Source: Lactobacillus johnsonii (GTDB lineage Bacteria; Bacillota; Bacilli; Lactobacillales; Lactobacillaceae). From it: DNA of 64,000 nucleotides. Below the pieces are notes generated by a model. The model saw only the letters and a list, made by a program, of their open reading frames with translations, did not search any database and was not told the origin of the DNA. Numbering within the stretch: position 1 is the first letter of the stretch; every line of letters starts with the position of its first letter. Position numbers and translations under genes: made by a program. Of the stretch, positions 3,983 to 19,463 are shown piece after piece. The DNA is taken from NCBI RefSeq assembly GCF_013487865.1, contig NZ_CP047409.1, forward strand, positions 620,001-684,000, written 5' to 3'.

Positions 3983-3990
3983 AAAATAAA

Positions 3991-4019: not shown

Positions 4020-4055
4020 TATGCCGTTTGAGTAGCAATAATTGTATATTTAACC

Positions 4056-4132
4056 GAATTGGTAAAAAAATGAACTGGTTTGGTATTTTTTGTATTTTTA
4101 TTTTAAAGAAAGGAATAAAATACAGGTATAAA
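4056..4132 (+). promoter_or_regulatory. candidate LytTR-type regulated promoter (site A)
   Basis: Two 9-base direct repeats, GAATTGGTA at 4056 and GGTTTGGTA at 4077, start exactly 21 bases apart. A minus-10-like TATAAA lies at 4127-4132. The 14-base string TTTGGTATTTTTTG at 4079-4092 recurs exactly at 11269-11282, upstream of the bacteriocin pheromone gene. Repeats 21 bp apart are the known binding pattern of PlnC/PlnD-type LytTR regulators. The repeat-to-minus-10 distance is 50 bases here and 38-39 at the other three sites, about one helical turn more. Binding is inference. Confidence 0.55.
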
Positions 4133-4167
4133 TATATAAGAAAAAATAAAATGTGAGGAAATTAATT

Positions 4168-4557
4168 ATGAAAAATTGGGGTTTAACAGCCATGTACATT
4201 GTCGTAATGTTACTAGGCTTCTTTGAATTGTATCGTACCTTCAGATTTTATAAGTGGGATAAAAAGGCAAAACAACTTGCAACTGCACCTTATGTAATAT
4301 ACTTTGGAACCTTCATTAGTGCAGTATTGATTATCGTACCAGTCATGTTCTTGTTAGGGGATACGAATCCTTATATTCCACACTTTTTATATGTTATTCT
4401 AGGAATTATTTTAATTATCGTATCACTTTTAATGTACTGGCGTGGACATCAAATGGCTAAAAAGTTGGGCAAGGATGATAGTAATTTAGCCGTTTGGCAA
4501 ATTTATTTAATTAGTACGGTAATTCTATTTAGTGGATTTGTAAATTTCTTTAAGTAA
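4168..4557 (+). CDS. four-helix membrane protein, unknown function
   Basis: I do not recognise this 129-residue protein. It has about four hydrophobic helices (near residues 5-20, 45-65, 72-92 and 110-128) joined by short charged loops such as RFYKWDKKAK and RGHQMAKKLGKDDS. There is no signal peptidase or lipobox site. ATG 4168 has GAGGAAAT upstream; a GTG at 4153 is less likely. It is monocistronic between two terminators. Its promoter resembles those of the bacteriocin locus 7 kb away, which suggests a role in immunity or in processing by the bacteriocin system, but no family evidence supports this. Confidence 0.8.
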   Translation: MKNWGLTAMYIVVMLLGFFELYRTFRFYKWDKKAKQLATAPYVIYFGTFISAVLIIVPVMFLLGDTNPYIPHFLYVILGIILIIVSLLMYWRGHQMAKKLGKDDSNLAVWQIYLISTVILFSGFVNFFK

Positions 4558-4568
4558 ATTATCTAGTA

Positions 4569-4612
4569 AAAAGAGCAACTACACATGAAAATATATGTGA
4601 AGTTGCTCTTTA
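4569..4612. terminator. bidirectional terminator
   Basis: AAAGAGCAACT pairs with AGTTGCTCTTT, with an inner ACACAT/ATATGTG helix. A-rich and T-rich flanks let it serve both the membrane gene on the left and the leftward phosphotrehalase gene on the right. Confidence 0.85.
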
Positions 4613-4616
4613 TTTA

Positions 4617-6275
4617 CTATATTTTAATTGCTAAAGCTTCATATGGCTTTAACTCAAGTGTTGAAGGAAGAGTAACAATCTCTTCATCATAATTTTGAAT
4701 TAAAATTTCACCGTCACGATCTATATATTCCGTAGGAATTTCAACCTTTGTTTCTTTGCCATAGAAGTTAGCAAAGACTAATAATTTTTCGTCAGAGTTA
4801 TCTAAGTAGCGTTCATATGCCATAACCTGGGGATGATCCATCAAAAGAGGCTTAATGTGACCAGCTGAAATTAATTCTTCGCTTTTTCTAAGTTTAATTA
4901 ATTTTTGGTAGAAATTAAATATTTCTCCTTCACGTAATTCCTTTTCACCATTCACCTTGTCTTGGTCAGTTGGCATCAGCCAAGGCTTACTTTCACTAAA
5001 ACCAGCATATTTAGAATTATCCCAATGCATTGGGACTCTTGAATTATCACGAGCTTTTGATTGAACGATTTCAAAAGCTTCTTTTTTATTCATCCCTTTA
5101 GCAATGAGGGCATCATATGCATTTAGTGCTTCAATATCAACATAATCTTTCATCGAAGTATAGTGTGGATCCATCATACCGATTTCTTCACCCATGTAGA
5201 TATAGGGTGTTCCACGCAGTAGGTGAAGAGCGAGAGCTAACATTTCAGCAGATTTGTCATGATATTTACCGGTATCGCCAAACCGATTTAAAGCCCAAGG
5301 CTGGTCATGATTGTTCCAAAATAGAGCTTGCCAACCGCCACCTTGGTCAATTTTGCTGTTCCAAGTAAGCATAATGTCTTTTAATTTTTTGAAGTCAAAA
5401 GACATCTTTGACCACTTTTCTCCATTTTTGTAGTCAACTTTGAGATGGTGGAAAGTAAATACCATTGAGAGTTCATGATCTTGTGGGCGAGTATAAGCAA
5501 TTGAATTTTCAATTGTAGTAGAGGACATTTCTCCAACAGTGACAGACTCTGGATCTTGACCAAAGGACTTAGCGTTTAATTCTTTTAGATATTGCTGCAC
5601 TACTGGAGTATCAGTATAGAGTGATTTTTCTTGGACTGGATCAGTTGAATCAACTAGGACAGTATCTTTTCCTGTTACATTAATTACGTCAAAGCGGAAA
5701 CCGTGAACACCCTTACTGCGCCAAAAGTTTATTACATCAATTAAGGCAGCGCGAACCTCTGGATTGTGCCAGTCAAGATCTGCTTGAGTTGGATCATAAA
5801 GATGGAGGTAGTAATAATCTGTGTCACCAAATTTTGACCAGGCAGGGCCACCAAATTTAGATTGCCAATTGTTAGGCAACTTTCCATCTTTACCTTTTCT
5901 GAGATAGAAGAATTTTTGATATTTTTTATCACCAGCAAGAGCCTTTTTGAACCATTCATGTTCAGTAGAACAGTGGTTTAAGACCATATCAAGCATGACA
6001 TTAACATTTATATCTTTTAGTTTAGCCACTAATTCTTCAAAGTCGGCCATAGTTCCAAAGCGAGGATCAATTTTTTTATAATCAGCGATATCATAGCCGT
6101 TATCATTTTGCGGGGAAACAAAAAATGGATTAAACCAAATAAAGTCTACATTTAGCTTCTTAATATAGTCAATTTTTTGGATAATTCCGCGTAAATCACC
6201 GATACCGTCATTATTTGAGTCATAAAAAGATTTTGGATAAATTTGGTAAATTACTTTATTGCCTAAATTATTCAT
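4617..6275 (-). CDS. treC: alpha,alpha-phosphotrehalase (GH13)
   Basis: Cytoplasmic hydrolase of 552 residues that splits trehalose 6-phosphate into glucose and glucose 6-phosphate. GH13 motifs are present in order: DMVLNH at 96-101, GFRFD ending at the nucleophile Asp 196, VGEM with acid/base Glu 249, and NHDQP at 322-326. GH13 oligo-1,6-glucosidases look alike; the choice of phosphotrehalase rests on the adjacent TreR-type regulator and the divergent PTS gene. ATG 6275 is preceded by AGAAAGG. The gene lies 15 bases after the regulator gene on the same strand, so the two are probably cotranscribed. Confidence 0.9.
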   Translation of the reverse strand: MNNLGNKVIYQIYPKSFYDSNNDGIGDLRGIIQKIDYIKKLNVDFIWFNPFFVSPQNDNGYDIADYKKIDPRFGTMADFEELVAKLKDINVNVMLDMVLNHCSTEHEWFKKALAGDKKYQKFFYLRKGKDGKLPNNWQSKFGGPAWSKFGDTDYYYLHLYDPTQADLDWHNPEVRAALIDVINFWRSKGVHGFRFDVINVTGKDTVLVDSTDPVQEKSLYTDTPVVQQYLKELNAKSFGQDPESVTVGEMSSTTIENSIAYTRPQDHELSMVFTFHHLKVDYKNGEKWSKMSFDFKKLKDIMLTWNSKIDQGGGWQALFWNNHDQPWALNRFGDTGKYHDKSAEMLALALHLLRGTPYIYMGEEIGMMDPHYTSMKDYVDIEALNAYDALIAKGMNKKEAFEIVQSKARDNSRVPMHWDNSKYAGFSESKPWLMPTDQDKVNGEKELREGEIFNFYQKLIKLRKSEELISAGHIKPLLMDHPQVMAYERYLDNSDEKLLVFANFYGKETKVEIPTEYIDRDGEILIQNYDEEIVTLPSTLELKPYEALAIKI

Positions 6276-6290
6276 TGATATAGTACCTTT

Positions 6291-7016
6291 CTAAAACTTA
6301 ATCTTTTTTCTACGAGCAAAATCAACAAATTTGAACTTATCGGGTCTATGATAAGACAAAGTTAATTGAAATTTAGTTGTATTAGCTAAGTAATTACGGC
6401 TTGCAACTAAAACTGCAAGATCATTGTCGAGTTGAAGTAAGTCTTGAATTCTTTTATCAACTTTGCAGACAGAAATTTCTTTTGTTGCGTATGAAATATC
6501 TAATTTTTGTTTATTTTCTAAATAGTCATAGATAGAAGTCTCAGCAGCTTCCTGTGGAAGAGAATTAACTGGAGGGGAGAGTAAATAGTCACAATCCAAT
6601 ACATCTGCCTGCCCATCTATTAAACGTAATCGTTCAAGATGAAAACCGATGCTATTTTCTTCTTCAGGAAAATACTTTATAAATTGCGCTGGTAATTTAT
6701 CTTCTTTTTGTAGAAGTAATACTTTTGTCTCAGCTTTTAATCCTAATTGGTTATTCAATTCCGCAAAACTAGTAATTCCGGAAATTGGAAAAGTATAACG
6801 ATCTAAATTCAATACAATTGAACCTTTTCCTCTAATTTTTTGGATCAGTCCTAGGTCAGTTAAGCTGTTAAGAGCTTTTCGAATTGTCTCACGAGAAGCG
6901 CCATATAAATCCATTAATTGATGTTCACTTGGGAGATAGTCGCCAGGCTTATATTGTTGATGTTTGATTTTATCAACTAAGTCTTGAGCAATTACTCCAA
7001 ATTTAGATTGAGCCAT
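6291..7016 (-). CDS. treR: trehalose operon GntR-family repressor
   Basis: Regulator of 241 residues. The N-terminal winged helix has LPSEHQLMDLYGASRETIRKAL (given here only to show the helix-turn-helix) and the wing KIRGKGSIVL at about 60-70. The C-terminal UTRA-type effector domain would sense trehalose 6-phosphate. The open frame extends to 7193, but ATG 7016 is the start because GGAGGG lies just upstream and the domain begins here. It is transcribed with treC and away from the PTS gene. Matching operators in both promoters imply that it controls itself and the PTS gene. Confidence 0.9.
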   Translation of the reverse strand: MAQSKFGVIAQDLVDKIKHQQYKPGDYLPSEHQLMDLYGASRETIRKALNSLTDLGLIQKIRGKGSIVLNLDRYTFPISGITSFAELNNQLGLKAETKVLLLQKEDKLPAQFIKYFPEEENSIGFHLERLRLIDGQADVLDCDYLLSPPVNSLPQEAAETSIYDYLENKQKLDISYATKEISVCKVDKRIQDLLQLDNDLAVLVASRNYLANTTKFQLTLSYHRPDKFKFVDFARRKKIKF

Positions 7017-7038
7017 AAAAAACCCTCCTTTGTCTTTA

Positions 7039-7066
7039 ATTATATACACTTGATTAGACAAGTAAA
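7039..7066 (-). promoter_or_regulatory. treR-treC promoter with TreR operator in the spacer
   Basis: On the minus strand, TTTACT (7066-7061) and TATAAT (7044-7039) are 16 bases apart. The inverted repeat ACTTG-ATTAGA-CAAGT at 7048-7063 lies across the spacer. It matches the operator in the divergent PTS promoter, so repressor binding should block RNA polymerase directly. Confidence 0.7.
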
Positions 7067-7130
7067 GAAAAACATTTTTAATTATAAAATATTGATTTAA
7101 AAGAAAAGTAAGCTTTTTCATAAAAATATA

Positions 7131-7157
7131 TTGACAACTTGTACAGACAAGTATAAT
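7131..7157 (+). promoter_or_regulatory. PTS trehalose promoter with TreR operator in the spacer
   Basis: TTGACA (7131-7136) and TATAAT (7152-7157) are 15 bases apart. The perfect inverted repeat ACTTGT-ACAG-ACAAGT at 7137-7152 fills the spacer. The second operator of this design lies about 90 bases away in the treR promoter. Confidence 0.78.
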
Positions 7158-7209
7158 ATTAAAATCAAGATAAATGAAAGCGGATACTTTCAAAGGGGAG
7201 AATGAAATT

Positions 7210-9138: not shown

Positions 9139-9225
9139 TATAATAGAAAAAATTATGGCCATTATTTGATCTTAGAACGGGCAATTAGTAGATTTGATAA
9201 CCAAATTAAGTTGATAAAATTGATA

Positions 9226-9257
9226 AAACAGCGTTGATAATTCAGCGCTGTTTTTTT
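9226..9257 (+). terminator. terminator of the trehalose PTS gene
   Basis: AACAGCG and CGCTGTT form a hairpin with a loop around TTGATAATTCAG, followed by seven T residues. Confidence 0.8.
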
Positions 9258-9337
9258 GAATTCAATAGTTGAAAATATTAAATCTTATTAATATAATTAA
9301 TAATAATTTAATTGTGTCGTAGATTGGGGGAAAGGCT

Positions 9338-10132
9338 ATGATCTTTGAAAAGCTTTTTTCTAAAGAAAATAAAAAAGATGAGATTGTTAGGGTAAAAATA
9401 AGTGACGAAGAATTCAACGAATTGAAAATAAAATTAAGTAGCGGGGATGTAACAGTTGAACAAGGAGAACGTTTTGCAGTTAACTTTATAGGTAAACGGC
9501 ACTACTTACCTATTGTTCAATTGGAAAATGGAAAGTTACAGCTTAAGCAGAGAATTAATTTAATTGATAATGGTGAAGCGCATCTTAAAGTCTTTGTACC
9601 AGCAGATGTAACTTTAGATAGGCTTGATGTTCAAACTAATAGTGGTGATATTGAAATTGTTGATACCAAAGTGGAAAAAGCATATCTTAAATCGACTGAG
9701 GGAAGAGTTAGAGTAAGACGTGTTGCAATTGCTGAAGCCCTTCTTGAATCAACAGATGGTAATGTGACCGTGAGAAACAGTGATTTAGCTGATGGGAAGC
9801 TGGCTACATATGACGGAGAAATTAAAGTATCTGGATCTACTTTATCTAAAATTTCATTGAATGTTACCGATGGAGACATGAATTTAACTGACGTAACTAT
9901 TGATGGTGGAAGTGCAAACTTAAAGGCTGGTAATTTCACCTTAGATCATGCTGTCTTTAAGAGCGATTATGAGATTAATAATATTGAAGGGCATAATACT
10001 GTCTGGAGTGCAAATTTAAAGTACGCCCGTGTCAGGACAGCTAATGGACTAAATAATATTTCATTTGATCCGCAACCATCTGGAGTGATCTTAACAATGA
10101 CAACAGTAGATGGAGATAATGTGGTGGAATAG
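9338..10132 (+). CDS. DUF4097-like beta-repeat protein
   Basis: 264 residues made of repeated short beta-strand units such as NSGDIEIVDTKV, STEGRVRVRRVA, STDGNVTVRNSD and VTDGDMNLTDVT. This is typical of DUF4097 'adhesin-like' proteins, which fold as right-handed beta-solenoids. There is no signal peptide, transmembrane helix or LPXTG motif, so it is probably cytoplasmic or peripheral. The N-terminal 20 residues are highly charged. ATG 9338 follows GGGGAAAGG. It is cotranscribed with the small membrane gene just downstream (8 bases), so the pair may act at the membrane. Function unknown. Confidence 0.8.
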   Translation: MIFEKLFSKENKKDEIVRVKISDEEFNELKIKLSSGDVTVEQGERFAVNFIGKRHYLPIVQLENGKLQLKQRINLIDNGEAHLKVFVPADVTLDRLDVQTNSGDIEIVDTKVEKAYLKSTEGRVRVRRVAIAEALLESTDGNVTVRNSDLADGKLATYDGEIKVSGSTLSKISLNVTDGDMNLTDVTIDGGSANLKAGNFTLDHAVFKSDYEINNIEGHNTVWSANLKYARVRTANGLNNISFDPQPSGVILTMTTVDGDNVVE

Positions 10133-10139
10133 GAGAAGA

Positions 10140-10367
10140 ATGGTGAAAAGAGAGAAATCTAAGCAGAAAAATTTAGGAATTTATAGTAGCTTGAAATCAG
10201 TTATTATTAATACAGTCTCATTCTTTGTAATGAGTTCTATAGTAGTGGGAATTTCTAATTGGAGTGAATCTCAAAGCTTAATACTGAAAACGTCAGAATA
10301 TCTTGGATTAATAGGTGGAAGTCTGATTGGTGGAATTATAATGAGTTTCTTTTTTGGTGAAAAATAA
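10140..10367 (+). CDS. small two-helix membrane protein
   Basis: 75 residues: a basic N-terminus (MVKREKSKQK), a hydrophobic segment at about 22-42 and a glycine-rich one at about 54-73 (GLIGGSLIGGIIMSFFFG). I do not recognise the family. ATG 10140 has AGGAGA close upstream. It follows the DUF4097-like gene by a few bases and ends in the shared terminator before udk. DUF4097 proteins often sit beside small membrane partners, so a membrane complex is possible. Confidence 0.65.
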   Translation: MVKREKSKQKNLGIYSSLKSVIINTVSFFVMSSIVVGISNWSESQSLILKTSEYLGLIGGSLIGGIIMSFFFGEK

Positions 10368-10396
10368 CCCCGTGGAAAACCACGAGGTTATTTTTA
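10362..10396. terminator. bidirectional terminator before udk
   Basis: AATAACC-C-CGTGG pairs with CCACG-A-GGTTATT, flanked by A and T runs. It serves the small membrane gene and the leftward uridine kinase gene. Confidence 0.8.
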
Positions 10397-11029
10397 TTTG
10401 ACTGTACTTAAAACTGAACGAATCTTCGTAGTAAGCATATCGATAGCAACATCATTTTCTCCACCTTCTGGAACAATGATATCAGCATAACGCTTAGTTG
10501 GTTCAATGAATTGATTATACATGGGCTTAACCGTTGCTAAGTATTGATTAATTACTGATTCTACAGAACGTCCACGTTCTTGTGTATCACGCTCTAATCT
10601 TCTGATAAAACGAATATCATCATCAGTATCTACAAAGACTTTAATACTCATTAAATCACGTAAATTTTCTTCGCCTAAAACTAGGATACCCTCTAAGATA
10701 ATAATATCGGCTGGTTCAGTGTGAATTGTCTTTTCACTTCTTGTATGAGCGGTAAAGTCATAAACTGGCATTTCAACTGCCTTATAGTCCATTAATTGAC
10801 GTAATTGTTCAACAAGAAGTGGCATGTCAAAGGCATCAGGATGGTCGTAGTTGATTTTTTTACGGTCTGCCATTGATAAGTTGTCGTTGTTCTTGTAGTA
10901 AGAATCTTGCGTCATAATTAAGATATGGTCGTCTTGTTGTAATTGGTCATAAATTTCATGGGCGATGGTTGTTTTACCACTACCAGAACCACCAGCAATT
11001 CCAATGATAATAGGGCGTTTACTTTGCAC
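10394..11029 (-). CDS. udk: uridine kinase
   Basis: Phosphorylates uridine and cytidine to UMP and CMP in pyrimidine salvage. It has 211 residues, normal for the family. The P-loop GGSGSGKT is at 13-20, with DSYYKNN and DHPDAFD near 42-65 as in other uridine kinases. The start is GTG 11029, with AGGAGA eight bases upstream. It is a single gene, transcribed leftward from the intergenic region it shares with the bacteriocin pheromone gene. Confidence 0.93.
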
Positions 11030-11357
11030 AATAAAATCTCCTTTTTTAAACTATTACAATAATACCTTAAAATTATGCCCTATGATAGCTTTCTGAGCAA
11101 TAATCTTGACAAATATGTTTTTTATAGTGAAATATTTTGGAACTAGTTAAAAATAAATATCTTGTTCACTATTAATATTTATAAAATTAATTCTCTTTCA
11201 AAAAAATATATATTTACTAGTAGTACGTTATAGAAAAAGAATACTAAATCAGTAATCAAATTGACCAATTTGGTATTTTTTGATTTTTTAGATAGTAAAA
11301 GATGGTAATATTTAAGACATAAAAATGTTATTAATTGTTTTAGAGGAGAGAATAACA
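11030..11357. other. 328-base divergent regulatory region
   Basis: AT-rich spacer between udk (leftward) and the pheromone gene (rightward). The udk half holds its ribosome site. The right half holds the candidate LytTR repeats (listed separately). I see no other gene or structured RNA. Confidence 0.6.
11246..11311 (+). promoter_or_regulatory. candidate LytTR-type regulated promoter of the pheromone gene (site B)
   Basis: Direct repeats AAATCAGTA at 11246 and AATTTGGTA at 11267 start 21 bases apart. The extended minus-10 TGG-TAATAT has its hexamer at 11306-11311, 39 bases after the second repeat. The lack of a good minus-35 fits an activator-dependent promoter. The adjacent LytTR regulator (14321-15118) is the natural ligand. 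Confidence 0.65.
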
Positions 11358-11513
11358 ATGAAAGAAATTAAAAAAGAAAATATTGTTAAGAAAGTTATTT
11401 TAACTGAAGAGGAAATGAGTGAAGTTACTGGTGGAGCTAGAGTAAATGCCTTTGCTGGTGGTGGAAAAATTAGTAAAAATATATTTTACTGGACGCGTAA
11501 TATTTGGAAATAA
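11358..11513 (+). CDS. double-glycine leader peptide, probable bacteriocin-inducing pheromone
   Basis: 51-residue peptide. The 26-residue leader ends ILTEEEMSEVTGG, a classic double-glycine leader cut by C39-peptidase exporters such as the one at 15131. The predicted mature peptide is 25 residues, from ARVNAFAGG to NIW K, basic and ending in aromatic residues. Its small size and position just before a sensor kinase gene point to an inducing pheromone, not a killing bacteriocin. Its promoter carries the LytTR-like repeats. ATG 11358 has AGAGGAGAG upstream. The kinase gene starts two bases after its stop. Confidence 0.85.
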   Translation: MKEIKKENIVKKVILTEEEMSEVTGGARVNAFAGGGKISKNIFYWTRNIWK

Positions 11514-11515
11514 AA

Positions 11516-12822
11516 ATGTTATTAGTATATGTTCTTTTAATGCTTGCTTCTGGAATAACTGACTTATGGATATTCTTTAGAATTTCTCAAGTTGCAGCTA
11601 GCAAAAAAATATTTTGAGTCTAGGTGCAGTGGTACTATTACTTCCCATTTTATGTGTGGGAGTTATCGAACTAGCTACTTTTTTAGAAATTTTATTTTTT
11701 GTATTTTATTTTAGAAAAAGTAAAGAAAAGGATGTGGCTATTGGATCAATTCTAATTGTGGGAGTTGTAGATTCCATCGTAGATATATTAGCCAGTATCT
11801 TAGCGGAGCTTTTGTTCATTGAGGATGCAATTTATCTCAATTTATTAGTCCAAATTATCGTTTTAATTTTTACTGTCTTTATAATTGAAATATTTCATAA
11901 ATATTTTTACTCAGATTTAATAAGTGAGAATCACAAGGTGTTTATTGGACTTCTGTTCTACTTGTATGTCTCCACCACTTTAACAATAATTTTTTACAGG
12001 CAAACTAGAAAGGTTACATCGTTAAGCATATTTTTTACAATTTTTGTATTAATACAAGTAGTCTTTGCAGTAGCCACTTACGGGGAACTAATAAATATTC
12101 AAAAACATCTTTTGAAAAAGTCCCAACAAGACAAACTAATAAAAGAGCAAAAACAACTTCAAGAATACACGCGATACTTAGAAGAGAGCGAAGATGAACT
12201 GCGTGCTTTTCGCCATGATTATCGAAATATGTTTAATTCATTAAAAATCAGTGCACAAGAGGGAGATACGAAGGAACTAATTCAAAAACTAGACGAATAT
12301 ACTAAGACTAATTTAAATGCCAAATCATTTGAAAAGTATAGAGATGTTAATCATATTAAAATAAAATCTTTGAAAAGCATTATTATTGCTAAGTTAACAG
12401 AAATGTATGGATCAAAAATCCCATATAATTTCGAATGTAGAGATGATATTACTAAAATCCCTAACAATATTAATGGATTGGATTTAGTTAGAATTATTGG
12501 CATCAGTTGTGATAATGCAATTGAAGAAAGTAAAGCATTATTGAAGCAGAATAAAAAAGCTCATATTGAAATTATGATTAGTTCAAATGAGGATGGCGAA
12601 TTTGAATATGAAATTCAGAATAAAAGAAGAGATTCAGAAATTTCACTTAAACAAATCCAGCAACGTGGTTATTCAACGAAGAAAAGTCATTCTGGCATGG
12701 GTTTAGCCAATATCAATAGTATTAAGAATAAATATGAAAATATGACAATCTCTTATGAAGTGCCGAAGGGATACTTTGATTTCTATCTCGTAATTGAACC
12801 AGAGGAGCTAATTAACAGTTAA
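11516..12822 (+). CDS. bacteriocin pheromone sensor histidine kinase (HPK10), N-terminal frameshift
   Basis: Membrane sensor for the pheromone. The frame opened by ATG 11516 encodes a first membrane helix (MLLVYVLLMLASG...) but ends at TGA 11614-11616 just after seven A residues at 11603-11609. The rest of the kinase continues in another frame to 12822. One more A would join them into a protein of about 435 residues, normal for this family. The downstream part has several membrane helices, phospho-acceptor His in FRHDYRNMFNSLK, the N-box DNAIEES and the G-box GMGLANI. A TTG restart at 11614 lacks a ribosome site. It is either inactivated or switched by slippage on the A tract. Confidence 0.8.
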
Positions 12823-12858
12823 TGAAAATATAGAAATTTATAGAAGAAATAGAAAAAC

Positions 12859-12893
12859 AGCTTATTTAGAAAGTTAAACATGGAAAATAAGCT
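12859..12893. repeat. left-end subterminal hairpin of the IS605-type element
   Basis: AGCTTATTT and AAATAAGCT form a perfect 9-bp stem with a 17-base loop. In this family such palindromes mark the ends bound by the transposase. It could also act as a weak terminator for the kinase transcript. Confidence 0.55.
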
Positions 12894-12965
12894 TTAATTT
12901 AATATTTACTTGTTTTGCTTTCCTTCCTTAGATAAACTTATGTTTGTATTTAAGGAGGTGAAGAA

Positions 12966-14123
12966 ATGATTAAAACACAAGTAGTTAAGCTAAAAGTTAA
13001 TAAAACAATGCAAAAGCATCTTGATAATTTGTGCGACTATCGTAGGTATTGCTGGAACAAAGGATTAGAAACTTGGCAATTAATGTATGAAGCTCATACA
13101 TTAAATAGAAAAGATAATCCTAGCCCTAATGAACGCAGGGTCCGTGATGAATTAGTAGCTAAGAAAGAAGATTGGCAGTATGAATTATCTGCACGTTGTC
13201 TTCAATTAGTGGTTAAAGATTTGGCTAATGCTTGGAAGAACTTCTTTGATAAGGCTCAATCTGATTGGGGTAAGCCTAGTTTCAAATCAAAGAAAGCCCC
13301 TAGACAAAGCTTTAAAACTGATCGAGCTAAGATTGTTAATGGCAAGCTTCGACTTGATAAACCTAGAAGTGTCTCAAAAGAAGATTGGTTTGATTTGTCT
13401 AGTTATGGGGCCTTAAAGATGAGTGAAGTTAAAGTAGTAAGTATCTTCAAAGAAAAAAACGCTTATTATGCGGCTCTTCCCTATGAAGAAAAGATTGAAT
13501 ATAAATCTAAAACTCATCAAAAGACAGCAGTTGATGTCAATGTCGGTCACTTTAATTACACAGATGGACAAATCAATGTTTTGCCTGTTAAACTGCAAAA
13601 ACTATATAAACGTATCAAGCATTATCAAAGGATGCTAGTCCGTAAAAGAGAAATTAATGGGAAATCAGCTATTAAATCAAATAATTACTCTGCAGTGAGA
13701 ACCAAACTGCAAAGAGATTATCGCAAGGTAGCTAATATTCAAAATGATCTTTTACAGAAGTTTACTACTAAGCTTGTAGATAATTACGACCAAATCGTAA
13801 TTGAAGACTTAGCAGTCAAAGACATGATGATGACGCACGTAGCTTCAAAAGGTATGCAGAGGTCTTTATTTAGTAAGTTTAGACAGATATTAACTTATAA
13901 GTGTGATTGGTATGGCAAAGAATTAATCTTAGCTGATAAAACATATCCATCAACACAAAGATGCGCTAAATGCGGATACGTCAAAACGGGTGATGAAAAA
14001 ATTACTTTGCAAGGCAATCAAAAGCATGGCACCAAACATAATGAGTATATCTGTTATAAGTGTGATTACAGTAATGATCGAGATGAAAATGCAGTTTTAA
14101 ACCTTTTAGCTTTAGCAAGATAA
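12966..14123 (+). CDS. tnpB: TnpB RNA-guided nuclease of the IS200/IS605 family
   Basis: 385-residue accessory protein. Known TnpB proteins are nucleases guided by an RNA made from the element's right end. The RuvC catalytic set appears complete: Asp 190 (TAVDVN), Glu 280 (IVIEDL) and Asp 371/373 (NDRDENAVLNL). The zinc-finger CAKCG...CYKC is at 333-366. Positions match those of the studied ISDra2 protein (D191, E278). The RuvC-I wording VDVNVG differs from the usual GIDLG but keeps the Asp. The start ATG 12966 has a strong AAGGAGGTG. The protein looks intact, so it is not a nuclease-dead TldR-type repressor. No tnpA is present, so movement would need one in trans. Confidence 0.92.
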   Translation: MIKTQVVKLKVNKTMQKHLDNLCDYRRYCWNKGLETWQLMYEAHTLNRKDNPSPNERRVRDELVAKKEDWQYELSARCLQLVVKDLANAWKNFFDKAQSDWGKPSFKSKKAPRQSFKTDRAKIVNGKLRLDKPRSVSKEDWFDLSSYGALKMSEVKVVSIFKEKNAYYAALPYEEKIEYKSKTHQKTAVDVNVGHFNYTDGQINVLPVKLQKLYKRIKHYQRMLVRKREINGKSAIKSNNYSAVRTKLQRDYRKVANIQNDLLQKFTTKLVDNYDQIVIEDLAVKDMMMTHVASKGMQRSLFSKFRQILTYKCDWYGKELILADKTYPSTQRCAKCGYVKTGDEKITLQGNQKHGTKHNEYICYKCDYSNDRDENAVLNLLALAR

Positions 14124-14320
14124 AAAAATAAAAACAAAGGGGCTGGCTAGGCCCTAAAGCTGTGAGAGCTAGTCAATGTGATTACTCCTAAATGGAATAT
14201 CAGAATACTAATGAAGACAACAGTAAATAAAACAAAGAAAGGGAAAATATATCTTTCTGATATGTAGAAAATACATATTCTTCTACATATTTCCATGTTT
14301 TATATAGCAGTGAAAAAACA
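14124..14320 (+). ncRNA. probable omega (guide) RNA region at the right end of the tnpB element
   Basis: The 197 bases after tnpB hold GC-rich hairpins, for example GGGCTGGCTAGGCCC near 14141-14155, and end at the host junction. In TnpB systems the guide RNA covers the end of tnpB and this region, and its guide is the host sequence just past the right end. Here that would start TGAAATATCCAGTAATTATT, the first codons of the regulator gene. Identified by position and family knowledge only. Confidence 0.45.
14260..14290. repeat. right-end subterminal hairpin of the IS605-type element
   Basis: ATATGTAGAA and TTCTACATAT form a perfect 10-bp stem with an 11-base loop, 30 bases before the regulator's start codon. 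It pairs in concept with the left-end hairpin at 12859-12893. Confidence 0.55.
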
Positions 14321-15118
14321 TTGAAATATCCAGTAATTATTTGTGATGACGATAAAACACTAGCAAATAATTTAGTAAATAATGTGAAATACGCAGCTCA
14401 GAATTTAGTTGAAGACAATACAGCTTATGAAAATGTGGAGATTAGTGTAGAGCAAGTTGCCACTACCTTTGAGCAAGTCGTAAGTTATGTAGTGGCTAAG
14501 GATATTCAAAATGCAATTTACTTCTTAGATATTGAATTAAGTCAAAATTCTGAAGCTAAGAATGGAGTAGATTTAGCAGAATTCATCAAAAAACAAGATC
14601 CGAATGCTCAGATTATTTTTGTTACTGCTTATGATAAGTACGCCCCCTTAACTTATCGAAGACGAATTGGTGCAATTGACTATATTAATAAAGCACTAGA
14701 CCAAAATGATATGATGAAGCGTCTAGAAGAAACAATTACTGGGGCGATTCAAAGTATTAACAATCTTACAAAGTCTGGAAGAAAAGAGCTTGTTTATAAA
14801 GTAGGCCGCAGGATAAATAAGGTAGAAGATACTAATATCTATTATCTTGAAAATAGCCCTACACAGCATAAAGTCACTCTAATAACTGAAACTGGTTCAG
14901 CTGAATTTAGAAGCAATATTTCAAAAATTAGTGATGAAAATGACTTTCTTGTTAAAATATCTCAATCTTGCGTAGTTAATCCAAATAATATTGATAGCAT
15001 TGATTTTTCGAAAAAGACCATAACATTTCCTAATGGGGATGAAGTAATATTTGCTCGTAGCTTCAAAAAACATGTCAAGAATTTACTAAATAAATATCCG
15101 GAAATTAACGTTAAATAA
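14321..15118 (+). CDS. LytTR-family response regulator of the bacteriocin locus
   Basis: Transcription activator of 265 residues. The receiver domain has acidic DDD at 9-11, phospho-acceptor Asp 70 (YFLDIEL) and the VTAYDKYA segment at 101-108. The C-terminal LytTR DNA-binding domain covers about 150-260. It should bind 9-bp repeats 21 bp apart, as seen at four promoters in this window. The start codon is TTG 14321 with no clear ribosome site: the upstream transposon has replaced the first base of the original ATG and removed coupling to the kinase gene. Expression may be low. The exporter genes follow in the same direction. Confidence 0.9.
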   Translation: MKYPVIICDDDKTLANNLVNNVKYAAQNLVEDNTAYENVEISVEQVATTFEQVVSYVVAKDIQNAIYFLDIELSQNSEAKNGVDLAEFIKKQDPNAQIIFVTAYDKYAPLTYRRRIGAIDYINKALDQNDMMKRLEETITGAIQSINNLTKSGRKELVYKVGRRINKVEDTNIYYLENSPTQHKVTLITETGSAEFRSNISKISDENDFLVKISQSCVVNPNNIDSIDFSKKTITFPNGDEVIFARSFKKHVKNLLNKYPEINVK

Positions 15119-15130
15119 AAGGTAAGACTT

Positions 15131-17290
15131 ATGTTATTCAAATATAAATCTGTTTATGTACCTCAAGTAGATGAGATGGATTGCGGAGTTGCTTGTCTAG
15201 CAATGATCTTAAAGCAGTATCAATCTCGTGTGTCTTTAGCACATTTGCGTCACGAAGCTCGCACAAATCTTGAAGGCACAACTACGCTGGGACTAGTTAA
15301 AACAGCACAGAAATTTAATTTTAAAACTGAAGCCGTAAAAGCTGATATGTCTCTTTTTAATGAGGATACTATTCAATACCCTTTTATCGTGCATGTTCTT
15401 AAGCAAGGAGAATTACTTCATTATTACGTAGTTCTTAAAAATACTAAGAATTACTTAGTAATTGCCGATCCTGATCCATCAGTTGGCATAATAAAGATGC
15501 CTAAAGATAAATTTGCTCAAGAATGGACTGGTATTGCGCTTTTTATGGTTCCGAATGAAGATTTTGAACCAATTAAAGAAAAGAAAAATAACCTATGGTC
15601 TCTCTTTCCATATATGTTTAAGCAAAAGCGGCTGATGATTAATATCATTTTAGCCGCTTTATTAATGACAATAATTAGTATTTGTAGTTCATACTTTGTG
15701 CAAGGAATAATCGATACTTATATTCCCGATGGAACTTATCAGACTCTTTCAATTTTAGCTGTTGGACTATTAATTGCTTATATTTTTAATTCAATCTTTT
15801 CTTATGGACAGAATTTTTTATTAAATGTTCTAGGTCAAAGATTAAGTATTGATTTAAACCTCCAATATATAAGGCATATTTTTGAATTGCCAATGGAATT
15901 CTTTGTGACTAGAAGAACTGGTGAAATAACCTCACGTTTCTCTGATGCAAGTAGAATTATTGATGCTCTAGCAAGTACTGTTATTTCACTTTTCTTAGAC
16001 TTAGCGATTGTAATTGTAATGGGACTAGTGTTAGCTGCTCAAAATATGACCTTATTTGGAATCACATTATTAGCTTTACCAGTATATGCTGTAGTAATTC
16101 TGGGATTTACTAAGAAATTTGAAAAGTTAAATGATGAACAAATGGAGAGCAATGCAGTACTAAGTTCTTCAGTCATCGAAGATATTCAAGGTATTGAAAC
16201 TATCAAAGCTCTCAATAGTGAAGATACAAGATATCGTAGAATCGATAGCCAATTTGTAAATTATTTAAAGAAGTCATTTAAATATAGTAAGGCTGAGAGT
16301 TTGCAGACGGCGTTAAAGACATTTATTCAACTATCTCTTAATGTAATTATTTTATGGGTTGGCGCACGAGTAGTGATGCAAGGACAGATGAGTATCGGTC
16401 AATTAATGACTTTTAATGCGTTACTATCTTATTTCATTGACCCACTTCAAAATATTATTAACTTACAACCTCGTCTTCAATCAGCTAGTGTTGCACAAAA
16501 TAGATTGAACGAGGTTTATCAGGTGCAAAGTGAATTTAATGCAGATACTTCTATCCAGAACTCAGCTGCTTTAGAAGGAATGATTGAATACAAGCATGTT
16601 GATTATCGATATGGTTATGGGACGGATGTTTTAAAAAACATTAATCTAAAAATTAAGCCAGATGAAAAATTAGCAATTGTTGGCATGAGTGGATCAGGAA
16701 AATCGACAATGGTTAAGTTACTCGTTGATTTCTTTTCACCAAGTAAGGGAGAAGTAACTTTAAATGGTCATGCAACTAGTGAAGTTAATAAACATACCTT
16801 ACGCTCATATGTTAACTATGTTCCTCAAACGCCATATATCTTTTCTGGAACAGTTAAGAAGAATTTATTACTCGGCTGCAGACCGGATATTAGCGAAGAA
16901 GATGTAATTAAAGCCTGTCAGATTGCTGGAATTGATCAGGAGATAGCTAGTTTGCCACTACAATTCGAGACAAAGTTAGATGAGAATGCCAAGATTTTAT
17001 CCGGTGGACAAAAGCAGAGATTAACTATTGCTAGAGCATTACTCTCGCCAGCAAAAGTTTTTATCTTTGATGAAGTAACAAGTGGTTTAGATACAATTAC
17101 AGAAAAAAGAGTAGTTGACAATCTTATGAAACTAAAAGACAAGACAATCATTTTTATTGCACACCGTCTAGCCATTGCAGAACGTGCAGATAAGGTGGTT
17201 GTAATTGACCAGGGGCAGATTGTTGAAGAAGGAAGTCATGAAGAGCTTATGGAGCAACATGGTTTTTATTATGACTTAGTAAAGGGATAG
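15131..17290 (+). CDS. bacteriocin/pheromone ABC exporter with C39 peptidase
   Basis: Inner-membrane exporter of 719 residues that cuts double-glycine leaders and secretes the peptide. The N-terminal C39 protease has Cys 18 (EMDCGVACLAM), His 97 (LLHYYV) and Asp 113 (ADPDP). A six-helix membrane domain spans about 165-450. The ATPase has Walker A GMSGSGKST near 518-526, the signature LSGGQKQR and Walker B VFIFDEVTSGLD. All catalytic motifs are intact. ATG 15131 follows a modest AAAGG. Its substrate here should be the pheromone at 11358. It is in an operon with the regulator upstream and the accessory gene downstream. Confidence 0.93.
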   Translation: MLFKYKSVYVPQVDEMDCGVACLAMILKQYQSRVSLAHLRHEARTNLEGTTTLGLVKTAQKFNFKTEAVKADMSLFNEDTIQYPFIVHVLKQGELLHYYVVLKNTKNYLVIADPDPSVGIIKMPKDKFAQEWTGIALFMVPNEDFEPIKEKKNNLWSLFPYMFKQKRLMINIILAALLMTIISICSSYFVQGIIDTYIPDGTYQTLSILAVGLLIAYIFNSIFSYGQNFLLNVLGQRLSIDLNLQYIRHIFELPMEFFVTRRTGEITSRFSDASRIIDALASTVISLFLDLAIVIVMGLVLAAQNMTLFGITLLALPVYAVVILGFTKKFEKLNDEQMESNAVLSSSVIEDIQGIETIKALNSEDTRYRRIDSQFVNYLKKSFKYSKAESLQTALKTFIQLSLNVIILWVGARVVMQGQMSIGQLMTFNALLSYFIDPLQNIINLQPRLQSASVAQNRLNEVYQVQSEFNADTSIQNSAALEGMIEYKHVDYRYGYGTDVLKNINLKIKPDEKLAIVGMSGSGKSTMVKLLVDFFSPSKGEVTLNGHATSEVNKHTLRSYVNYVPQTPYIFSGTVKKNLLLGCRPDISEEDVIKACQIAGIDQEIASLPLQFETKLDENAKILSGGQKQRLTIARALLSPAKVFIFDEVTSGLDTITEKRVVDNLMKLKDKTIIFIAHRLAIAERADKVVVIDQGQIVEEGSHEELMEQHGFYYDLVKG

Positions 17291-17300
17291 GTGAAGATAG

Positions 17301-17894
17301 ATGGACGTAAAAGACTATGAAAGCACAGAATTCTATTCCTATAAATTTAAAAATTTTTCGACAATGATTATTATTCCAGCTGCTATTCTTGTCTTCCTTG
17401 TATTTATTGGTTCTTTTTTTGCAATTAGACAGAGTACAGTTTCTTCAGTCGGAGTTATTGAGCCAGTGACTGTGATTAAACAAAAAACTACTAATTATGA
17501 TGAGGGGCAAATTGTAACAAAACATGGTCAAAAATGGGTAGCTCATATTGATCAAGATGATGCAGTAAATTTGATGCCCATGATAGCAGCCAAGAAACAG
17601 GTGAAGATAATCACTTACGTACCAAGTAATAAGGTTTCGGCTATTAAAAAGGGACAGACGATAAACTTTTCTGTCCCAACAGGAGATGGCTTGACCAGTA
17701 GATTAATTGGTAAAGTGAGAGAAATTGGCGTTTATCCAGTAAATATAAATAAGCAGAGTGGCTATGAGATCATCTCGACTGCGAAAATTAATGATGAAAA
17801 TGTTAAGTATGGGATGCAGGGAAATGCGACAATTCTCACGGGTAGTAGCACTTATTTTGAATACTTTTTAGATAAGATCTTGAATAAGAAATAA
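17301..17894 (+). CDS. bacteriocin export accessory protein
   Basis: 197-residue bitopic membrane protein: short cytoplasmic N-terminus, one hydrophobic helix at about 22-45, then an extracytoplasmic part with beta-rich segments. It occupies the place of the HlyD-like accessory factor in class II bacteriocin loci, which is usually about 450 residues and has a coiled-coil hairpin. Here only the parts flanking the hairpin seem present. It follows the exporter by 10 bases with GGTGAAG at a suitable distance. The short form may be normal for this species group; I cannot exclude a deletion. Confidence 0.75.
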
Positions 17895-17938
17895 GTTTGA
17901 TAAAATGATGTTAAATCATATTAGGTGAGGACAGAAAT

Positions 17939-18223
17939 ATGAATGAAAATAAGCTAAAAATGATGTTGACTAAAATCAAAGCAAATGTTGATATTGCAAC
18001 TGATCCAGAAGCACAAAAACTAATTGAATCAGCACTTGATGCAGTAGATAGAAAAATTGATTTACAAAAAGTTATGCATGATCTAAAGCAAGATATTAAT
18101 ATGTATTCTGTGGCGCATGGATTTAAGCTACCAGAGACTTTGACAAAGTTACAGCTTTTATTAGATAAAAATCCTGATAAATGGGTTGGTGCAGGTGCTG
18201 GTGGAGTTTGGCCAGTAATCTAG
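17939..18223 (+). CDS. bacteriocin immunity-like protein (enterocin A immunity type)
   Basis: 94 residues, mostly helical, without membrane helices. Size and pattern fit the four-helix-bundle immunity proteins of pediocin-like bacteriocins. The C-terminus is unusual: DKWVGAGAGGVWPVI, rich in Gly and Trp. The C-terminus decides specificity in this family. The protein at 19464-19778 is a paralog with a similar Trp/Gly-rich tail. RBS AGGTGAGG is upstream. No bacteriocin gene accompanies it. The family call is by eye and moderate. Confidence 0.65.
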   Translation: MNENKLKMMLTKIKANVDIATDPEAQKLIESALDAVDRKIDLQKVMHDLKQDINMYSVAHGFKLPETLTKLQLLLDKNPDKWVGAGAGGVWPVI

Positions 18224-18240
18224 ATATAAATAGAATTTTT

Positions 18241-18290
18241 AAAAGTACCGAATTAGTCACAAACAATACTAATTTGGTACTTTTTATTTT
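18241..18290 (+). terminator. terminator-like hairpin overlapping regulatory site C
   Basis: AGTACCGAATTAGT pairs with ACTAATTTGGTACT with one G-T pair, then TTTTTATTTTT. It would end the transcript that runs from the regulator through the first immunity gene. Confidence 0.65.
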
Positions 18291-18314
18291 TGGACAATTT
18301 TAAAATGCTAAAAT
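18250..18314 (+). promoter_or_regulatory. candidate LytTR-type regulated promoter (site C)
   Basis: Direct repeats GAATTAGTC at 18250 and AATTTGGTA at 18271 start 21 bases apart. The extended minus-10 TGC-TAAAAT has its hexamer at 18309-18314, 38 bases after the second repeat. The same stretch also forms an inverted repeat (TACCGAATTAGT with ACTAATTTGGTA) followed by T residues, so it can double as a terminator for the upstream immunity gene. Confidence 0.6.
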
Positions 18315-18352
18315 TTAAATCTATAGGGAAAATAATTAGGAAGGAAAAATAA

Positions 18353-18586
18353 ATGAAAATTATTGAGGCCAATGAAAAAGCAGCTTCAAGAAAAGAAAGA
18401 TGGATAGTCCTAAGTATAAGTTTGATCTTCGGAGACTTAATGAACAAATTATTTTTACGGTTGACTTCGATTGATAGCTTTATTCTAAGCATGGTAATTG
18501 GAATCGGAAGCATGTATTTGCTTGAGAGTGGATATTATTATTTTAGAGATGATATTCAGAAAATAATAGAAAAGTTCAAGAAGTAA
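18353..18586 (+). CDS. small two-helix membrane protein of the immunity cluster (copy 1)
   Basis: 77 residues: charged N-terminus MKIIEANEKAASRKERW, then two hydrophobic helices at about 17-32 and 40-58 and a basic tail. It is a paralog of the protein at 19110-19340: both share the pattern M-K-(I/F)-I-E, WIV, (L/I)NKLFL-LT and YYY. ATG 18353 has GGAAGGA upstream. First gene after candidate promoter C. The context suggests immunity or protection against a bacteriocin, but I do not recognise the family. Confidence 0.7.
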   Translation: MKIIEANEKAASRKERWIVLSISLIFGDLMNKLFLRLTSIDSFILSMVIGIGSMYLLESGYYYFRDDIQKIIEKFKK

Positions 18587-18629
18587 TAGGTTTATTCATC
18601 TCAACTTAAATTTTAGGAGGAGAATAAAA

Positions 18630-18905
18630 ATGGCTATAGGATACATTCCAATTATTTTACTTTTAATAATTGCTTTAGGTAATATTACTATTTCACTAAA
18701 ATTGCATAAGATAGTCAGAACCTCTGACGCCTCAAATATCTTAGTGTTTGGAATAGTGACCATGGTTATTTTTGCCTTAAAAGATTTAGATTCATTTTCT
18801 TGGAGTTCAGCAATTGCTTGTATTTTTATGAGTATCGTTGTCTTTAAAGATCTATATAATGAATATCAACTTCAAATAAAAAATAAGTCTGAGGAACATA
18901 ACTAA
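18630..18905 (+). CDS. small three-helix membrane protein of the immunity cluster (copy 1)
   Basis: 91 residues with three hydrophobic segments (about 4-22, 38-52, 57-74) and a charged tail LYNEYQLQIKNKSEEHN. It shares length, helix pattern, an SxKxHK motif after helix 1 and an E/QYxxQxxN tail with the protein at 19781-20065. Three- to four-helix proteins of this size serve as immunity proteins for two-peptide bacteriocins such as lactacin F. RBS TAGGAGGAG is strong. Its stop overlaps the next gene's ATG. Confidence 0.7.
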   Translation: MAIGYIPIILLLIIALGNITISLKLHKIVRTSDASNILVFGIVTMVIFALKDLDSFSWSSAIACIFMSIVVFKDLYNEYQLQIKNKSEEHN

Positions 18906-19123
18906 TGAGAAAGCCATTAACGATTAGATGCATCTTCGCGGGATTTGCTTTTTGTTTACTTCAAACTCTAGGGGATATATTGGTCGGTAGTCAATTAACT
19001 CTTTGGATAATTCTCGGTAATATTCTGTGGGGAGTAATTTTTGCTTACTTAATGTTTAAATTATTAAAAAGAATGCAAGTGCGAAAGAAGCATCAAAGGA
19101 AAGATACAGATGAAATTTATTGA
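18905..19123 (+). CDS. small two-helix membrane protein
   Basis: 72 residues with two hydrophobic segments (about 8-26 and 31-53) and a very basic tail LLKRMQVRKKHQRKDTDE. No double-glycine leader, so it is not a bacteriocin precursor. ATG 18905 overlaps the stop of the gene before (ATGA-style), and GAGGAAC lies upstream. The next gene starts inside its 3' end. Tight coupling makes it part of the immunity block. Family not recognised. Confidence 0.65.
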   Translation: MRKPLTIRCIFAGFAFCLLQTLGDILVGSQLTLWIILGNILWGVIFAYLMFKLLKRMQVRKKHQRKDTDEIY

Positions 19124-19340
19124 AACCACTAATAAGAAAGATGCCCATACTGAGGAATGGATCGTAATTATTCTCAGTGTGATCTTTGCATATTTGATTA
19201 ATAAACTATTTTTATCTTTGACTAATAGCACTAGTATTACAGTGAGTCTTGTAGTTCTAATTGCGAGCATGAGTGTTTTTTCAATCACTTACTATTATGG
19301 TAAAGATAAACTCCAACAAAGGCTAAAAAGCAAAAAGTAA
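19110..19340 (+). CDS. small two-helix membrane protein of the immunity cluster (copy 2)
   Basis: 76 residues; paralog of the protein at 18353-18586, with the same two-helix layout (WIVIILSVIFAYLINKLFL, then a second helix and YYYGKDKLQQ). It starts 14 bases inside the preceding gene, with AAGGAAAG upstream. The duplication of this type together with the three-helix and soluble immunity types suggests that a whole module was copied and then diverged. Confidence 0.7.
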   Translation: MKFIETTNKKDAHTEEWIVIILSVIFAYLINKLFLSLTNSTSITVSLVVLIASMSVFSITYYYGKDKLQQRLKSKK

Positions 19341-19345
19341 GAACC

Positions 19346-19410
19346 AAATTGGTTGTAAAAAGTGCTAAATCGATCCAATTATCATTCTTATTAAAAAATG
19401 ATAGTAAAAT
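19346..19410 (+). promoter_or_regulatory. candidate LytTR-type regulated promoter (site D)
   Basis: Repeats AAATTGGTT at 19346 and AAATCGATC at 19367 start 21 bases apart; the second is a poorer match. TAAAAT at 19405-19410 is 38 bases after the second repeat, the same spacing as site C. A further direct repeat, ATGATAGTA at 19398 and 19421, is also present with a 23-base period and no known role. Confidence 0.45.
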
Positions 19411-19463
19411 TAATAAATGAATGATAGTATTTAAACAAATATAATCCTTTGGAGGACAAAAAC

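What the first reader, a model, noticed from the sequence alone, without database searches (positions are those of the whole stretch)
4056..19410. Four promoters with paired 9-bp repeats 21 bp apart: a probable bacteriocin regulon reaching a distant gene
Sites: GAATTGGTA/GGTTTGGTA (4056/4077), AAATCAGTA/AATTTGGTA (11246/11267), GAATTAGTC/AATTTGGTA (18250/18271) and AAATTGGTT/AAATCGATC (19346/19367). Each pair is exactly 21 bp apart. Three have a minus-10 at 38-39 bp from the second repeat, and the fourth at 50 bp, about one helical turn more. The rough consensus RAATYRGTA is unlike the published PlnC-type TACGTTAAT, but the geometry is the same. The seen part is the repeats and spacing. LytTR binding is inference.
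Basis: partly seen in the sequence, partly recalled or inferred. Interest (0 to 1): 0.8.

Follow-up and report, generated by a model that had tools for sequence, protein, structure and literature searches.

The report
Bacteriocin operators, tandem and inverted
Four control sites in front of bacteriocin-system genes in a Lactobacillus are real and shared with related species, but three of them are mirror-image rather than side-by-side repeats, and a relative with a single such regulator carries both layouts at the same spacing.

Summary
The four repeat pairs exist and are far above chance. They belong to a Lactobacillus operator: two RAATYRGTC half-sites 21 bp apart, with a -10 about 30 nt downstream, found mostly beside one clade of LytTR response regulators in gassericin-E-like loci. 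Corrections: (1) P1-P3 are inverted repeats (TACCRAATYRGTC-N8-GACYRATTYGGTA), not PlnC-like direct repeats; P4 is a weak direct pair. (2) All four have a -10 at the usual distance. (3) No bacteriocin gene was found here and the kinase frame is broken, so the circuit may be a remnant. (4) The 'distant gene' site P1 is weak and shared only with closest relatives.

Beyond the finding: direct and inverted operators coexist at one spacing and -10 distance, also in a relative (G010) with one full-length LytTR regulator, and promoters of homologous CAAX-protein genes are direct in one species, inverted in another. This suggests one LytTR regulator tolerating either orientation of the promoter-proximal half-site. 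Direct repeats before gaeP and gaeA were already described for gassericin E; the named searches listed no report of mixed layouts. Binding is inferred, not shown.

The parts
4052..4085 (+). P1 operator (inverted type, weak), before the 129-aa membrane-protein gene
   Evidence: (22.8 bits, held out of training); alignment of relatives
4116..4121 (+). P1 -10 TAAAAT, 31 nt after the operator
4168..4557 (+). 129-aa protein, membrane protein by its hydrophobic sequence (judged by eye), the 'distant gene'; no family above cut-off
11242..11275 (+). P2 operator (inverted type), before the pheromone gene
11306..11311 (+). P2 extended -10 TGgTAATAT (hexamer), 31 nt after the operator
11358..11513 (+). 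double-glycine peptide, 51 aa: inferred induction pheromone
   Evidence: weak match below cut-off to a bacteriocin-like peptide family
11614..12822 (+). histidine kinase (GHKL domain; AgrC-like, below that model's cut-off); its N-terminal part is in another frame upstream (A-run one base shorter than in G059 and G058)
12966..14123 (+). TnpB gene lying between kinase and regulator (also in G059)
14321..15118 (+). LytTR response regulator; of 4 LytTR hits in the genome the only one in a full-length frame (others 145-158 aa)
15131..17290 (+). C39-peptidase peptide/bacteriocin ABC exporter, 719 aa
17301..17894 (+). bacteriocin secretion accessory protein, 197 aa (below the family cut-off)
17939..18223 (+). 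enterocin-A-immunity-like protein, 94 aa (just below cut-off; 64% identical over 86 aa to a G059 protein above it)
18246..18279 (+). P3 operator (inverted type); also a strong hairpin (-18.5 kcal/mol) followed by T, 23 bp after the immunity-like gene
18309..18314 (+). P3 extended -10 TGcTAAAAT (hexamer), 30 nt after the operator
18353..19340 (+). four small ORFs of 77, 91, 72 and 76 aa, mostly hydrophobic by eye
   Evidence: 77 and 91 aa without Pfam match
19342..19375 (+). P4 operator (direct type, weak right half); counterparts in G071 (direct) and in G058 and G059 (undecided)
19405..19410 (+). P4 -10 TAAAAT, 30 nt after the operator
19464..19778 (+). 104-aa protein downstream of P4 (no family match; immunity role only guessed from position)

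Best explanation
The sites are operators of the locus's own LytTR response regulator (14321-15118). Inferred mechanism: a secreted double-glycine pheromone activates the AgrC-like kinase, the phosphorylated regulator binds as a dimer with one LytTR domain on each of two half-sites (RAATYRGTC) 21 bp apart, two helical turns on one DNA face, and recruits polymerase to a -10, often extended, 29-31 nt downstream. In this clade the promoter-distal half-site points forward, but the promoter-proximal half-site may be in tandem (P4) or inverted (P1-P3) orientation; a nearly palindromic half-site (ACYRAWTYRGT) would let point mutations move between the two. Shown by sequence: half-sites, spacing, two orientations, -10 distance, conservation, association with the regulator clade. 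Inferred: binding, dimer geometry, activation. In this genome the circuit is probably impaired (no bacteriocin gene found, kinase frame broken), so the four sites may control only export and immunity-like genes or be idle.
For: Spacing: in 513,814 bases (window plus 33 loci), distinct pairs of half-sites >=9 bits peak at 21 bp, 9 direct and 20 inward-inverted, 0 outward; every other distance from 11 to 44 has <=2. First-order Markov resampling (20 rounds) gives means of 0.1 direct and 0.05 inverted at 21 bp against 10 and 27 observed with duplicates. The extended -10 peaks at 29-30 nt (10 of 25 direct sites) and 29-31 nt (17 of 55 inverted sites, both strands counted), with 4 and 7 hits over all other offsets to 60. 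Half-site matrices fit an inverted layout (L1 distance 0.15) better than any direct register (best 0.69) over 29 distinct sites. Association: 16 of 19 genomes with a regulator >=50% identical have the inverted motif at <=3 mismatches against 10 of the other 56 (Fisher p 3.5e-7, relatedness not corrected), or 14 of 19 against 6 of 56 at <=2. 27 of 36 hits with <=2 mismatches lie within 15 kb of a clade regulator gene. At <=2 mismatches 11 of 25 Lactobacillus genomes and 0 of 372 others of the family match; reversed control 3 of 397. G010, with one full-length LytTR regulator, has 4 inverted and 4 direct sites within about 20 kb. CAAX-protein promoters: direct in G003, inverted in G010, proteins 71.5% identical.
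Against: No binding or expression data. The reversed control of the genus search hits 9 of 75 genomes at <=3 mismatches, so some of the 6 genomes with only 3-mismatch hits (two of them, G004 and G025, among the 16) are probably chance. Three genomes with a regulator >=50% identical (G005, G061, G031) lack the inverted motif. Nine of 36 hits with <=2 mismatches are not near a clade regulator: five are on contigs without one in fragmented assemblies (G016, G058, G068, G070 twice; G068 has only regulators up to 39% identical, G070 none found), G014 and G023 have no ortholog, G013 and G015 are unexplained. Strict direct pairs: 16 hits in 7 of 8 genomes searched, none in this genome, reversed control 2; one (G071 C27) is not near a regulator. 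Some 'direct' calls are hybrids differing from the inverted form mainly at the central base (G020, second locus of G058, G073). The 29 sites were found mostly with an inverted-form pattern, which favours that form. Loci were chosen by regulator or motif and are related, so sites are not independent. P1 and P4 are weak.
Confidence: 0.7

Rival explanations
1. The inverted sites are intrinsic terminator (or attenuator) hairpins followed by T-runs, and the shared sequence is coincidental or secondary.
For: P1-P3 fold into hairpins with T-runs behind them (-9.5, -11.3 and -18.5 kcal/mol; z -2.4, -2.8, -8.2). P3 lies 23 bp after an immunity-like gene. Arms pair slightly better with their own partner than with shuffled partners (12.09 against 11.85 of 13, reached by 1.3% of shuffles).
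Against: The same sequence recurs in many species at a fixed distance before a -10, so the hairpin would lie upstream of the transcript it precedes. Only 8 of 23 inverted-type sites are fully pairable and one inner position pairs in 14 of 23. Direct-type sites share half-site, spacing and -10 distance, and P4 does not fold (z -0.59). The gene before P1 already has a terminator-like hairpin at 3988-4015.
Confidence: 0.08
2. Two different proteins are involved: the LytTR regulator reads the direct sites and another dimeric DNA-binding protein reads the inverted sites.
For: Inverted operators usually go with symmetric dimers (PMC9723621, abstract), and the short LytTR proteins of these genomes (frames of 151-161 aa in G010, 145-158 aa here) were not excluded.
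Against: Both layouts use the same half-site, spacing and -10 distance, stand in the same locus of G010, and replace each other before homologous genes.
Confidence: 0.17
3. In this genome the circuit is dead or immunity-only, and the four sites are relics or control only export and immunity-like genes.
For: No Bacteriocin_IIc hit above cut-off in the genome; tblastn with bacteriocins of G059 and G010 finds no convincing match in the window (best E 0.48) and a loose double-glycine pattern over 11000-20200 finds only the pheromone and a stretch of the exporter. G059 has two Bacteriocin_IIc genes after exporter and accessory genes. Kinase frame interrupted near 11615.
Against: The A-run could be an assembly error, and translation from the TTG at 11614 could still give most of the kinase; P2 and P3 keep strong operators. 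Bacteriocin genes outside these families were not excluded.
Confidence: 0.5
4. P1 is a chance or decaying site and the 129-aa gene is not in the regulon.
For: Site weaker in G058 (14.1 bits against 22.8), below the 3-mismatch cut in G069, spacing 20 bp in G023, which has no regulator ortholog; absent in G021 and G071 although gene and neighbour are in place; level with two background places in the half-site scan.
Against: Held-out score third of 64 kb, -10 at 31 nt, 83 bp from operator to start codon like P2.
Confidence: 0.45

Closest known systems
Gassericin E locus gaePKRTC of L. gasseri EV1461 (PMC4788914, passages read)
   Same: Pheromone-kinase-response regulator-exporter-accessory order, exporter 719 aa and accessory 197 aa as in the window, imperfect 9-10-bp repeats upstream of the gaeP and gaeA promoters, binding by GaeR proposed.
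   Different: There described as direct L and R repeats like S. thermophilus Blp boxes, at two promoters; here four sites, three inverted, no bacteriocin gene found, TnpB inside the operon.
PlnC/PlnD regulon of L. plantarum (PMC2714321, passages read)
   Same: Two 9-bp half-sites with 12-bp spacer (21-bp period) upstream of the promoter; LytTR regulators; several operons.
   Different: TACGTTAAT in tandem; the words inverted and palindrom occur 0 times in its text.
SilA (PMC2766830) and LytTR regulatory systems HdrR/BrsR (PMC6193735), passages read
   Same: LytTR regulators on paired repeats, mostly 21-bp period; in SilA one base more or fewer in the spacer abolishes activity.
   Different: Direct repeats; other sequences; 'inverted' occurs 0 times in PMC6193735.
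ArdK of plasmid R388 (PMC9723621, abstract read)
   Same: One regulator able to bind direct repeats and an inverted repeat.
   Different: Helix-turn-helix KorA family repressor, not LytTR; there shown by structures.
AlgR sites at algD (title of a reference seen, paper not read)
   Same: A LytTR-type regulator with binding sites described as inverted repeats.

Membership tests
LytTR-controlled class II bacteriocin three-component regulon (PlnC/BlpR type) | LytTR response regulator beside a double-glycine pheromone gene and an AgrC/GHKL kinase | tested here: met
   but kinase frame broken and TnpB between kinase and regulator
LytTR-controlled class II bacteriocin three-component regulon (PlnC/BlpR type) | Pairs of half-sites with 21-bp period upstream of the -10 of several operons | tested here: met
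LytTR-controlled class II bacteriocin three-component regulon (PlnC/BlpR type) | Half-sites in direct (tandem) orientation | tested here: not met
   P1-P3 inverted, only P4 direct; several related regulators have direct pairs
LytTR-controlled class II bacteriocin three-component regulon (PlnC/BlpR type) | C39-peptidase exporter and accessory protein in the locus | tested here: met
   exporter above cut-off, accessory protein below its cut-off
LytTR-controlled class II bacteriocin three-component regulon (PlnC/BlpR type) | Structural bacteriocin gene under control | tested here: not met
   none above cut-off in this genome, none found in the locus by tblastn or loose pattern; present in G059 and G010
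LytTR-controlled class II bacteriocin three-component regulon (PlnC/BlpR type) | Regulator binds the repeats and activates transcription | not testable with these tools
   needs gel shift and expression data
Gassericin E/T regulatory-transport operon (gaePKRTC) | Sequence orthology of regulator and exporter to GaeR/GaeT | tested here: inconclusive
   same gene order and lengths as reported; GaeR and GaeT sequences were not compared
Intrinsic terminators | Stem kept by pairing, T-run, position after genes | tested here: inconclusive
   P1-P3 fold, P4 does not; 8 of 23 inverted-type sites fully pairable, weak arm coupling

The most novel reading that the evidence does not exclude
A single LytTR response regulator controls its regulon through two operator symmetries, tandem and inverted, at one fixed spacing and one fixed distance to the -10, and promoters of homologous genes have switched symmetry during evolution through a nearly palindromic half-site. 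The LytTR regulators in the passages I read act on direct repeats (one reference title speaks of widely separated inverted AlgR sites); this would be a natural direct-inverted operator switch inside one regulator family.
Probability: 0.58. Interest if true: 0.65.

Novelty: new variant of a known kind. Interest (0 to 1): 0.5.

Why it matters
How a dimeric regulator can sit on direct repeats, and how operators change symmetry without losing function, is an open structural and evolutionary question. Here nature offers matched promoters, some of homologous genes, differing mainly in the orientation of one half-site, under what looks like one regulator. It also gives a searchable operator for finding quorum-controlled bacteriocin genes in Lactobacillus, a genus of gut, vaginal and food bacteria.

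Tried and rejected
A longer interdomain linker as the reason for the flip: no linker insertion seen in the alignment of 35 regulators. 'Inverted for regulation and immunity, direct for bacteriocins': fits G010 but not G003, whose two CAAX-type promoters are direct. Terminator reading: kept only as a possible second role of P3. My first double-glycine pattern turned out to miss both G059 bacteriocins, so the absence of bacteriocin genes rests instead. Direct pairs in 20 loci of sister and more distant regulators: the script with an extended -10 found pairs in 4 of 20, one of them a doubtful inverted one; looking before double-glycine genes gave CAGAATATG-type pairs in G001 and G042 by count, others only by eye. 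So 'direct is ancestral' is weakly based. Plasmid tblastn with the regulator: 71 records, all under 60% identity (20 listed, best 41.5%), not pursued. The genome-contig scan found two regulator relatives. Orientation of sites was chosen partly by the -10, so -10 counts there are partly circular; one search counts both strands. Dropped before counting: sites with more than 4 mismatches, hits without TAnnnT at 28-32 nt.
Full report
What was checked. The window is G000:C1:620001-684000 of a 1,995,616-base genome; a 96% identical regulator lies in a record titled uncultured Lactobacillus sp.. With the shorter 9-base half-site and any TAnnnT, two other window places score like P1.

The -10. TAAAAT, TAATAT, TAAAAT and TAAAAT start 31, 31, 30 and 30 nt after the 34-bp operators of P1-P4. 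None of the four is among the two-hexamer promoters listed by the consensus scan (60 of 63 shown), as expected of promoters that need an activator.

Relatives. In 75 Lactobacillus genomes, 32 have a regulator relative at E <= 1e-20 and 26 have the 34-bp form with up to 3 mismatches; the reversed control hits 9 of 75. Of 19 genomes with a regulator >=50% identical, 16 have it, of the other 56, 10 (Fisher p 3.5e-7 without correction for relatedness); at <=2 mismatches 14 of 19 and 6 of 56. The three misses are G005, G061 and G031. Of 36 hits with at most 2 mismatches, 27 lie within 15 kb of a regulator of the clade; of the 9 others, five are on contigs without one in fragmented assemblies, G014 and G023 have no ortholog, and G013 and G015 are unexplained. 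In a family sample of 397 genomes, 11 of 25 Lactobacillus and 0 of 372 others match at <=2 mismatches; the reversed control matches 3 of 397. An operator (up to 4 mismatches) stands 73-83 bp before the start of a double-glycine pheromone-like gene in G000, G014, G020, G021, G033, G058, G059, G069, G070 and G073.

Inverted, not direct. Over 29 distinct sites the left half-site matrix is close to the reverse complement of the right one (mean L1 distance 0.15) and differs from the right one read directly (0.69 at the best register). These sites had been found mostly with an inverted-form pattern. I therefore scored both orientations of the right half with a matrix made from left halves only (14 distinct). 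In this genome P1-P3 score as inverted and P4 as direct; the P4 counterparts are direct in G071 and undecided in G058 and G059. Across 513,814 bases (window plus 33 loci), direct pairs peak at 21 bp (9 distinct) and inward-inverted pairs peak at 21 bp (20 distinct), outward pairs give 0 there, and no other distance from 11 to 44 exceeds 2. Markov-resampled sequence gives means of 0.1 and 0.05 against 10 and 27. Extended -10s peak at 29-30 nt for direct (10 of 25) and 29-31 nt for inverted sites (17 of 55, both strands), with 4 and 7 at all other offsets to 60.

Both forms with one full-length regulator. G010 has four LytTR hits of which one is of full regulator length (275-aa frame against 151-161) and one regulator match. 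It has 4 inverted sites and 4 direct sites with <=1 mismatch within about 20 kb. There the inverted ones precede a pheromone-like gene, two Rce1/CAAX-type proteins and the exporter; the direct ones precede two Bacteriocin_IIc genes, a double-glycine peptide and a 64-aa protein. Promoters of homologous CAAX-type genes are inverted in G010 and direct in G003, with proteins 71.5% identical. The strict direct pattern was run on 8 genomes: 16 hits in 7, none in this genome, reversed control 2. By the coordinates, 15 of the 16 lie within 15 kb of a regulator (one of them only if the chromosome of G003 is circular) and one (G071 C27) does not. Other regulators of the clade have direct pairs: G042 48%, G004 59%, G061 and G031 52% identical; among more distant ones CAGAATATG-type direct pairs were found in G001 and G042, while most of the 20 loci searched gave none. 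The regulator tree puts the regulators I had linked to RAATYRGTC sites in one 20-row clade (100/100); the order inside is partly unresolved and the root is the midpoint. That direct is ancestral is a weak inference.

This genome. The nearest relative G059 carries two Bacteriocin_IIc genes after exporter and accessory genes. Here the genome has none above cut-off, tblastn with bacteriocins of G059 and G010 finds no convincing match in the window, and a loose double-glycine pattern over 11000-20200 finds only the pheromone and part of the exporter. My first pattern was too strict to count. The kinase frame is interrupted near 11615; compared with G059 and G058 an A-run is one base shorter. A TnpB gene lies between kinase and regulator, as in G059. 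The circuit may be non-functional or serve export and immunity only.

The distant gene. Of 18 genomes with a relative of the gene, the site stands at 21 bp in G000 and G059 (identical) and, weaker, in G058 and G069, and with 20-bp spacing in G023, which has the gene (98%) but no regulator ortholog and, by eye, a frameshifted pheromone gene. G021 and G071 have the gene after the same neighbour without the site. In SilA a one-base change of spacing abolishes activity (PMC2766830, passages), so G023 fits loss of constraint, but this is one case. I give P1 about even odds. Bacteriocin pheromones acting on genes outside their cluster are on record for S. thermophilus BlpC (PMC10826417, search listing and start of abstract only).

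Known work. PMC4788914 (passages) describes imperfect direct repeats upstream of gaeP and gaeA in L. gasseri and proposes binding by GaeR. PMC2714321 (passages) describes 9-bp tandem repeats with a 12-bp spacer for PlnC/PlnD. PMC6193735 (passages) and PMC4227749 (passages) describe direct repeats for HdrR/BrsR and AgrA. PMC8545106 (passages) describes a 30-bp motif for BlpR of S. gallolyticus. PMC9723621 (abstract) shows a helix-turn-helix regulator that binds both layouts. AlgR sites described as widely separated inverted repeats are known to me only from a reference title seen. The searches listed no report of mixed direct and inverted LytTR operators by title and start of abstract; several lists were capped (20 of 38, 20 of 56, 20 of 439, 12 of 15, 12 of 80 and 12 of 64), and most subscription papers are not held.

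Verdict. The new part is the operator symmetry: a new variant of a known kind, unproven at the bench.

Noticed in passing
window 11504-12822: Kinase reading frame interrupted near 11615 at an A-run one base shorter than in two relatives; a natural break or an assembly error.
   Followed up: partly
window 17301-18353 against L097/L098: Compared with G059 the bacteriocin genes and a CAAX-type gene are missing here; G059 has a second, partial exporter/accessory stretch, so loss by recombination between copies is plausible.
   Followed up: partly
window 12966-14123: TnpB (RNA-guided endonuclease family) gene inside the bacteriocin regulatory operon, between kinase and regulator, also in G059.
   Followed up: partly
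window 18246-18290: P3 operator is also a strong hairpin followed by T, 23 bp after the immunity-like gene: operator and terminator may be one sequence.
   Followed up: partly
L091 9400-10320 (G023): A relative without the regulator ortholog keeps the pheromone operator, while its pheromone gene reads as frameshifted.
   Followed up: partly
L111 6727 (G013) and L112 6071 (G015): Operator-like sites with a -10 at 30 nt but no regulator of this clade nearby; G013 has a 45% identical regulator on another contig.
   Followed up: no
window 2-664 and 1850-2683: Two similar binding-protein genes that look like amino-acid ABC transporters (by eye), upstream of P1.
   Followed up: no
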